Below are positions 34,483 through 35,085 of a DNA stretch of 39,669 nt, piece by piece. Source of the DNA: Phanerochaete sordida (Eukaryota; Basidiomycota; Agaricomycetes; Polyporales; Phanerochaetaceae); contig BPQB01000146.1 in assembly GCA_019973155.2 (NCBI GenBank), forward strand, positions 1 through 39,669. The letters are read 5' to 3'. The stretch's first letter is position 1; each line of letters starts with the position of its first letter. Under the pieces are notes generated by a model. The model was given only the letters and a program-made list of their open reading frames with translations. It did no database searches and was not told the DNA's origin. The position numbers were made by a program, and so were the translations under genes.

Positions 34483-35085
34483 CTATTTTCTCCGTCTCAG
34501 CGCTGCGTTCTCCGCTCTTAGAGCCACGTTCGCTTCGTGGAGCTTCTCGTTATCACCACGTAGCTCTTTGTTCTTTGTATGGGCCAGCGCAAGCTCAGCG
34601 CGCGCGAGCCTGAGCTCTGCCTTCGTCACTTCCTGCTGCGCGTGGAAGTCCAAGATCTTTTCGTGCAGTACATCGAGGTGCATCTGCGCCATGGTCTGCG
34701 AGTCTTCTACGATGTCGCAGAGGCCCGTGAGTTCGCCGACCGTGGTGCCGGTGTTGGACGACCCGGAACCCAGCTGAAGCGCTGCTGGCAAAACATCAGC
34801 GCACGCCCTTACGAGCGACAGGACGGAGAGCGCACCTAGTCCCGAGCCCATCTGATTAACACTGTTTACACCATCTCGTTGCGTGACGAACACCGTCCCT
34901 ATCGTGAGCCTCGGCGGGTCTGAGCTGTCGGAAGCGAACTGCCCGCGAGCGGCCATGTCTGCAAGGACCTTCCGCGGCAGGCGCCCGCCCGTCGACTTGC
35001 GCGCAGTCTGCTTCGTGCGGGGCGGCCGCGGCGCCGGGGCCTCTGGAGCTATGTAGCCCGTGGCGGGGCTGGATTTGGTCGCCAT
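34483..35085 (-). CDS. Histone H3-tail mimic coiled-coil protein A
   Basis: The open frame from ATG 35085 encodes 200 aa. A likely intron (34835-34785, 51 bp, GTGCGC...CCAG, a multiple of three) would remove a hydrophobic stretch and leave 183 aa. Residues 23-34, RTKQTARKSTGG, equal histone H3 residues 2-13 exactly. The match then continues with substitutions (R35/L36 for K14/A15, P37 R38 K39 for P16 R17 K18, then VLADMAARG). Lysines equal to H3 K4, K9 and K18 and the serine equal to S10 are present; K14, K23 and K27 are not. The tail is internal, after about 22 Pro/Ala-rich residues. No histone fold follows. The C-terminal about 65 residues form a coiled coil (LDVLHEKILDFHAQQEV ... ALRAENAALRRRK). 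A chromatin reader or writer decoy or adaptor is an inference. Confidence 0.78.
   Translation of the reverse strand: MATKSSPATGYIAPEAPAPRPPRTKQTARKSTGGRLPRKVLADMAARGQFASDSSDPPRLTIGTVFVTQRDGVNSVNQMGSGLGALSVLSLVRACADVLPAALQLGSGSSNTGTTVGELTGLCDIVEDSQTMAQMHLDVLHEKILDFHAQQEVTKAELRLARAELALAHTKNKELRGDNEKLHEANVALRAENAALRRRK

What the first reader, a model, noticed from the sequence alone, without database searches (positions are those of the whole stretch)
34483..35085. Histone H3 tail copy on a coiled-coil protein
Residues 23-34 (RTKQTARKSTGG) are identical to H3 residues 2-13 and the match continues more loosely to about H3 position 26, yet no histone fold follows. A 12-residue exact match covering K4, R8, K9 and S10 is far beyond chance. 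The known family fact is that these H3 residues are read and modified by Set1, Clr4/SUV39, LSD1, HP1 and 14-3-3 proteins. Inference: this is a cellular histone mimic, coupled to a dimerisation domain, that could sequester or recruit H3-tail enzymes. Because the copy is internal, readers needing the free Ala1 should not bind unless it is processed.
Basis: partly seen in the sequence, partly recalled or inferred. Interest (0 to 1): 0.93.

Follow-up and report, generated by a model that had tools for sequence, protein, structure and literature searches.

The report
Fungal proteins copying histone H3 tail
A wood-rotting fungus and at least one relative carry small proteins that are not histones but have kept an almost unchanged copy of the histone H3 tail attached to a predicted coiled-coil rod, which suggests a built-in decoy or adaptor for the enzymes that read and write chromatin marks.

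Summary
Confirmed, and larger than reported. The window is Phanerochaete sordida. The 200-aa ORF (annotated PsYK624_166210, 182 aa) carries H3 2-13 exactly and 20 of 25 residues to R26, without a histone fold; residues 98-181 are predicted as one helix. It is not alone: a second such gene lies beside it (36249-35631), a third (PsYK624_078730) about 0.8 kb from an H3 gene. A tail-free coil query hit just these three genes below E 0.2. Six further relatives include one from Phlebiopsis gigantea. Across the nine, H3 2-12 is 96% identical pairwise, against 42% in the best local alignments after it. Conservation stops at G12 (G13 1 of 9, K14 3 of 9). That fits residues reported to be read by H3K9 methyltransferases (DIM-5 R8-G12, SUV39H1 K4-G12), not the importin Kap123 (K14, K23). 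Best reading: a dedicated histone-mimic family, most likely K9-centred substrates or ligands on a coiled-coil. Family and constraint are shown; methylation, binding, expression and dimerisation are inferred. Other non-histone proteins, one from Daedalea quercina, carry several tail copies.

The parts
34483..35085 (-). H3-tail/coiled-coil gene 1 (P0001; annotated PsYK624_166210 = P0002, 182 aa); exon 1 35085-34836, intron 34835-34782 (54 nt), exon 2 34781-34483
   Evidence: ORF; annotated protein; splice reproduced
34984..35019 (-). Exact copy of H3 residues 2-13 (RTKQTARKSTGG, protein residues 23-34)
34945..34983 (-). Looser continuation of the H3 match (RLPRKVLADMAAR, to H3 R26); a short helix 38-47 is predicted here with low confidence
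34489..34740 (-). Long predicted helix / coiled-coil, residues 98-181 of P0002
   Evidence: AlphaFold2, blocks from residue 101 on at pLDDT 87, 96-98, 90; tail-free coil query hits 34510-34731 at E 6.8e-5
35631..36249 (-). H3-tail/coiled-coil gene 2 (called M3 here; predicted 193 aa; exon 1 36249-35949, predicted 37-nt intron 35948-35912, exon 2 35911-35631), tandem with gene 1
   Evidence: coil exon hit at E 4.2e-4 by the tail-free query; the only P. sordida rows among the 120 shown are P0002 and P0003
36193..36225 (-). H3 residues 2-12 in gene 2: RTKTTARKSTG (Q5T)

Best explanation
Shown: the gene belongs to a family seen in two Phanerochaetaceae fungi and in five proteins of unnamed origin. 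Members have a short variable N-terminus, a near-invariant copy of H3 residues 2-12, a variable linker (with a PKKRKR/KKKKV-type basic run in 6 of 9) and a C-terminal coil; in the three P. sordida genes an intron separates tail and coil. Inferred: the protein is nuclear and acts as a free-standing H3 tail. Its K9 site is methylated by a SUV39/DIM-5-type enzyme and can then be bound by chromodomain proteins; the coiled-coil makes it multivalent or ties it to a partner, so it titrates or redirects the H3K9 machinery. Because the copy is internal, K4 readers that need free Ala1 are unlikely to be the main partners.
For: Family: full-length relatives. Coil homology without the tail: the three P. 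sordida genes are hits 1-3 of 5 (E 7.8e-26, 6.8e-5, 4.2e-4), the next 0.235. Constraint: in 36 pairs of 9 members the tail is 96% identical on average, 41.5% in the best local alignment after it. P0001 and P0003 each differ from the C22 H3 gene at 6 of 11 tail codons, all synonymously. Boundary: R2, T3, K4, T6-K9, T11, G12 are 9/9, Q5 and S10 8/9, G13 1/9, K14 3/9. DIM-5 in vitro needs only R8-G12 and is not significantly affected by K14R, A15M or P16A (PMC3248561, abstract and passages); SUV39H1 reads K4-G12 (PMC8303541, abstract and passages). The genome has 2 Pre-SET matches and 29 chromodomain matches. Tail region low-confidence and mostly non-helical, coil helical.
Against: No methylation, binding, expression or localisation data. 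R2-T3-K4 are as conserved as R8-G12, more than DIM-5 needs, so a K4-side partner is not excluded. The chromo-shadow domain was not found at E<=0.001 (nothing rang in the controls, so absence is not shown), and many chromodomain matches may be retrotransposons (inference from long open frames). P0006 has S10T and gene 2 has Q5T. Database homologs were partly found through tail words, which can inflate conservation (within one genome, is free of this). By raw score 4 of 21 family coil pairs do not beat the best control coil. P0001 shows, by eye, no classical basic signal outside the tail.
Confidence: 0.5

Rival explanations
1. The tail copy works on the K4 side: a substrate or competitor for Set1/COMPASS, LSD1 or PHD-type readers.
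For: R2, T3 and K4 are 9/9 in the coil family, and K4 is 12 of 13 in the other copies.
Against: All nine copies are internal and position 1 is A in only 3 of 9; many K4 readers and LSD1 need free Ala1 (recalled). In the 13 other copies T3 (8), Q5 (10) and T6 (10) vary while P16 (12) and R17 (10) stay common; those copies were picked by ARK[ST]TG, so positions 7-12 there prove nothing.
Confidence: 0.18
2. The tail was captured as a nuclear import signal (Kap123/importin-4 cargo).
For: The H3 tail is a known import signal, residues 1-28 (PMC5677370, passages); the segment is basic.
Against: Kap123 anchors on K14 and K23. K14 is kept in 3 of 9 and 0 of 13 copies, though R replaces it in 3 of the 9 and K14R is reported to have a minor effect on import. 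The K23 position is M in P0001, T in P0003 and I in P0164 (read by eye). An import signal would not obviously need T6, A7, T11 and G12 fixed. Six of nine members have other basic runs.
Confidence: 0.1
3. Chimeric gene without function: the first H3 exon was copied next to a coiled-coil exon and has no selected role.
For: P0003 starts about 0.8 kb downstream of an H3 gene on the same strand, and its resemblance to H3 (VVAP versus KTAP) stops near the end of H3 exon 1.
Against: Origin by exon capture is plausible, lack of function is not: the tail outlasts divergence of the rest in nine members, with synonymous-only codon differences from H3 in P0001 and P0003.
Confidence: 0.05
4. Decoy against selfish elements: the tail lures chromodomain integrases of retrotransposons, or shields genes from H3K9-based silencing.
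For: 29 chromodomain matches, several in open frames over 1000 aa; tandem copies.
Against: No direct evidence; whether those chromodomains bind H3K9me is unknown, and their frames were not examined.
Confidence: 0.08

Closest known systems
Histone H3 (N-terminal tail)
   Same: Residues 2-13 identical in P0001; 20 of 25 to R26
   Different: Internal copy, no histone fold, G13 and K14 mostly lost in the family, coiled-coil instead
G9a and its non-histone substrates such as WIZ, CDYL1, Acinus (PMC8541646, passages, a table part and reference titles seen)
   Same: Non-histone lysines methylated by an H3K9 enzyme; G9a's own site is called a histone mimic in a cited title
   Different: As recalled, those are about 4-residue ARK-type matches inside large regulators; here 11 residues in small dedicated proteins, in fungi, as a multi-gene family
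Influenza NS1 histone mimic (PMC12937675, passages)
   Same: H3-tail resemblance on a non-histone protein
   Different: Viral, C-terminal and described as H3K4-related; here cellular, internal, conserved through G12
Generic coiled-coil proteins (Shugoshin_N, ZapB, bZIP and other weak Pfam hits)
   Same: Helical coil
   Different: For P0003, P0124 and P0164 no hit reaches its cut-off; Foldseek with the P0002 model finds nothing in PDB at E<=0.001

Membership tests
Histone H3 | N-terminal tail sequence | tested here: met
Histone H3 | Histone fold after the tail | tested here: not met
   Pfam; AlphaFold2 (low-confidence region, then one long helix)
Cellular histone mimic | Histone-tail sequence in a non-histone protein beyond chance | tested here: met
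   (expected 1.5e-7 per genome)
Cellular histone mimic | The copied segment is under selection | tested here: met
   for coil homology free of the tail; no formal dN/dS test was run
Cellular histone mimic | Copied lysine is modified and read by chromatin proteins | not testable with these tools
   needs an in vitro assay
SUV39/DIM-5 substrate | R8-G12 recognition residues present | tested here: met
   8 of 9 have exact RKSTG, P0006 has RKTTG; requirement from PMC3248561
SUV39/DIM-5 substrate | Is methylated | not testable with these tools
   needs an in vitro assay
Kap123/importin-4 H3-type import signal | Lysines at the K14 and K23 positions | tested here: not met
   K14 3/9; K23 position is M, T, I in P0001, P0003, P0164 (by eye); requirement from PMC5677370
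H3-tail/coiled-coil family defined here | Homologous coil independent of the tail | tested here: met
   Control, 7 members and 5 other coils: in each member's row all family z-scores exceed all five control z-scores, but by raw score 4 of 21 pairs (P0002-P0003, P0002-P0164, M3-P0124, M3-P0164) do not beat the best control

The most novel reading that the evidence does not exclude
Polyporales fungi have a whole class of free-standing H3 tails (coiled-coil proteins, proteins with up to four tail copies, a VWA-domain protein with a rearranged tail) that form a regulatory layer: methylatable, nucleosome-free H3K9 tails that compete with chromatin for the heterochromatin machinery and set how much of it is available.
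Probability: 0.33. Interest if true: 0.95.

Novelty: new variant of a known kind. Interest (0 to 1): 0.87.

Why it matters
Known cellular histone mimics are, as recalled, short motifs in large regulators. A dedicated fungal family that holds eleven H3 residues nearly fixed while the rest of the protein drifts is a natural mutagenesis experiment: it shows which part of the tail is useful away from the nucleosome. It would give a genetic handle on whether soluble H3 tails tune heterochromatin, and a natural competitor peptide for H3K9 enzymes. Eight paper searches for such proteins or for known mimics (open-licence PMC papers only) listed no title describing a fungal family of this kind; I read passages of three of the listed papers, not whole texts.

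Tried and rejected
Chance match: rejected. Assembly join to a histone gene: rejected, as relatives exist elsewhere and P0003 sits in a 470-kb contig. Viral origin: two viral-contig scans gave 5 loci matching only the coil part of P0050 and none for P0005. Generic coil similarity as the only link: (7 members, 5 other coils of this genome, and P0050) family z-scores exceed the five controls in every row, but raw scores overlap in 4 of 21 pairs, and P0050's coil reaches z 10-11 with P0003, P0005 and P0123, above some family pairs; P0050/P0073 are therefore kept apart as possible distant relatives. A tree of nine members is unresolved, no starred branch, so gene orthology is not claimed. Chromo-shadow search negative without a positive control. 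Foldseek uninformative. The first homology search with P0001 found only its own annotation.

The MARTEKVARRSTGGRAPRRY protein on C103 was left as doubtful: a local paralog begins MPRTSRVARRGQ without STGG. The 40-residue H3 query missed the C30 copy that one search had found, so the list of tail copies in this genome is a lower bound.

Counts: 12 of the 120 rows shown lacked a precomputed Pfam domain and all 12 were read, 11 of 120, all read, of which 5 (P0051, P0054, P0059, P0064, P0079) look like H3 reading frames cut off, probably by introns. 2648 and 429 proteins passed the cut-offs and only 120 each were shown, so family size is a lower bound.

Full report
Observation. The minus-strand ORF 35085-34483 is as described. 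Residues 23-34 equal H3 2-13; without gaps, 20 of 25 residues match to H3 R26, and phmmer finds PDB H3 chains at E 5e-6. Pfam shows no histone domain. With the window's base composition the 12-mer is expected 1.5e-7 times in six frames of the genome. The genome is Phanerochaete sordida: the only database hit of the first search (E<=10, 1033 candidates) is PsYK624_166210, 182 aa, which differs by removal of a 54-nt intron. The species belongs to Polyporales, Phanerochaetaceae.

Not a single gene. A DNA search of the genome found 33 bases 97% identical on contig C22. They lie in a second non-histone protein with ARTKQTARKSTGSKAPRK, a PKKRKR run, a predicted 51-nt intron and a C-terminal coil; my splice equals the annotated PsYK624_078730 (P0003, 100% over 184 aa). 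It starts about 0.8 kb downstream of an H3 gene, same strand. Reading the flank of the given ORF showed a third: window 36249-35631, RTKTTARKSTGSKPPRAVLA, PKKRR, a predicted 37-nt intron, coil. It is tandem with the first, and the only P. sordida rows among the 120 shown are the other two.

Family. Two further protein searches gave P0004, P0005, P0006, P0123 and P0124 (unnamed contigs) and P0164 from Phlebiopsis gigantea (PHLGIDRAFT_161234; same fungal family). All six have tail then coil. P0005 and P0006 both list a contig of 2131 bases, which suggests a tandem pair there too (inference). To exclude that the tail alone links them, the genome was searched with the coil of P0005 without any tail: the three P. 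sordida genes are the top three of five matches (E 7.8e-26, 6.8e-5, 4.2e-4), next 0.235. So all three coil-family members detected in this genome carry the tail. As a control, seven members were compared with five other coils of this genome: in each row family z-scores exceed control z-scores, but by raw score 4 of 21 family pairs do not beat the best control, and the P0050 coil scores up to z 11 with some members.

Constraint. In 36 pairs of nine members the 11-residue tail is 96% identical on average, the best local alignment after it 41.5%. Per position: R2 9, T3 9, K4 9, Q5 8, T6 9, A7 9, R8 9, K9 9, S10 8, T11 9, G12 9 of 9; then G13 1, K14 3, A15 4, P16 8, R17 6, K18 8 of 9; A1 3. P0001 and P0003 each differ from the C22 H3 gene at 6 of 11 tail codons, all synonymous; P0001 and P0003 share 10 of 11 codons, while gene 2 shares 6 of 11 with each and has one amino-acid change. 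I read this as purifying selection on H3 2-12. Caveats: database members were partly found by tail words, and no formal dN/dS test was run.

Anatomy. AlphaFold2 on P0002 with seven relatives: residues 1-97 are low confidence, including a short helix at 38-47; then one helix 98-181 whose blocks from residue 101 have pLDDT 87, then 96-98, then 90 at the end. Pfam hits for P0003, P0124 and P0164 are generic coil families below their cut-offs, and the PDB fold search finds nothing at E<=0.001. Oligomeric state is not tested.

Likely mechanism. The fixed block ends close to where H3K9 methyltransferases stop reading. DIM-5 of Neurospora needs only R8-G12 in vitro; K4L, A7M, K14R, A15M and P16A have no significant effect in the assay described, G13M a slight one, although the paper's Table 2 and discussion count A7 and G13 among residues affecting DIM-5 (PMC3248561, abstract and passages). 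SUV39H1 reads K4 to G12 with R8 strict, whereas SUV39H2 also uses G13 and K14 (PMC8303541, abstract and passages). Kap123 instead needs K14 and K23 (PMC5677370, passages), which the family does not keep. The copies are internal, which disfavours readers of free Ala1 (recalled). The genome has Pre-SET (2 matches) and chromodomain (29 matches) sequences; no chromo-shadow was found, without a positive control. I therefore favour a K9-centred mimic, presented by a coiled-coil, that titrates or redirects the H3K9 machinery. R2-T3-K4 conservation leaves room for a second partner; [quoted passage not shown]

Other architectures. P0134 of Daedalea quercina (Polyporales) has four ARK[ST]TG copies, P0125 four, P0178 two; P0050 and P0073 have a tail that can start at Met-Ala-Arg and a coil. 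In P. sordida a VWA protein on C30 has GSGKAARKQLATTAARKTAAAPTG followed by RVRTKQTARKSTGG, i.e. H3 segments in swapped order. Across these 13 other copies K14 is in none, P16 in 12 and R17 in 10 (copies picked by ARK[ST]TG).

Novelty. Histone mimics are known (G9a and its substrates, PMC8541646, passages; influenza NS1, PMC12937675, passages). Searches of open-licence papers listed no title describing such a fungal family; subscription papers were not searched. I rate it a new variant of a known kind.

Uncertain. Expression, localisation, methylation, binding and oligomerisation are untested; the tree is unresolved; taxonomic spread is a lower bound.

Noticed in passing
G000 C30:211302-212672 (L056:1063-2433, minus): VWA-domain protein with H3 tail segments in swapped order (H3 14-34-like, then exact H3 2-13); its serine codon is AGC where the coil genes use TCG, so possibly an independent capture.
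   Followed up: partly
G000 C103:92177-92242 (within L059:2908-3243, minus): Small protein starting MARTEKVARRSTGGRAPRRY, an H3-tail-like start with R at the K9, K14 and K18 positions; a neighbouring paralog lacks the STGG.
   Followed up: partly
P0134, P0125, P0178: Non-histone proteins with two to four copies of an ARKSTG-type H3 tail, one from Daedalea quercina.
   Followed up: partly
P0050, P0073: Proteins of unnamed origin with MARTKQTARKSTGG plus a coil; free Ala1 possible if the inner Met is the start.
   Followed up: partly
window 29469-33780: Cluster of small minus-strand ORFs that look related by eye.
   Followed up: no
window 38842-39408 and L059:2297-2734: Proteins that look related by eye, beside coiled-coil ORFs on both contigs, suggesting a shared lineage-specific block.
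   Followed up: no
window 10036-11076, 18089-18883, 36487-37806: Further coil-like ORFs without an H3 tail; used as controls.
   Followed up: partly
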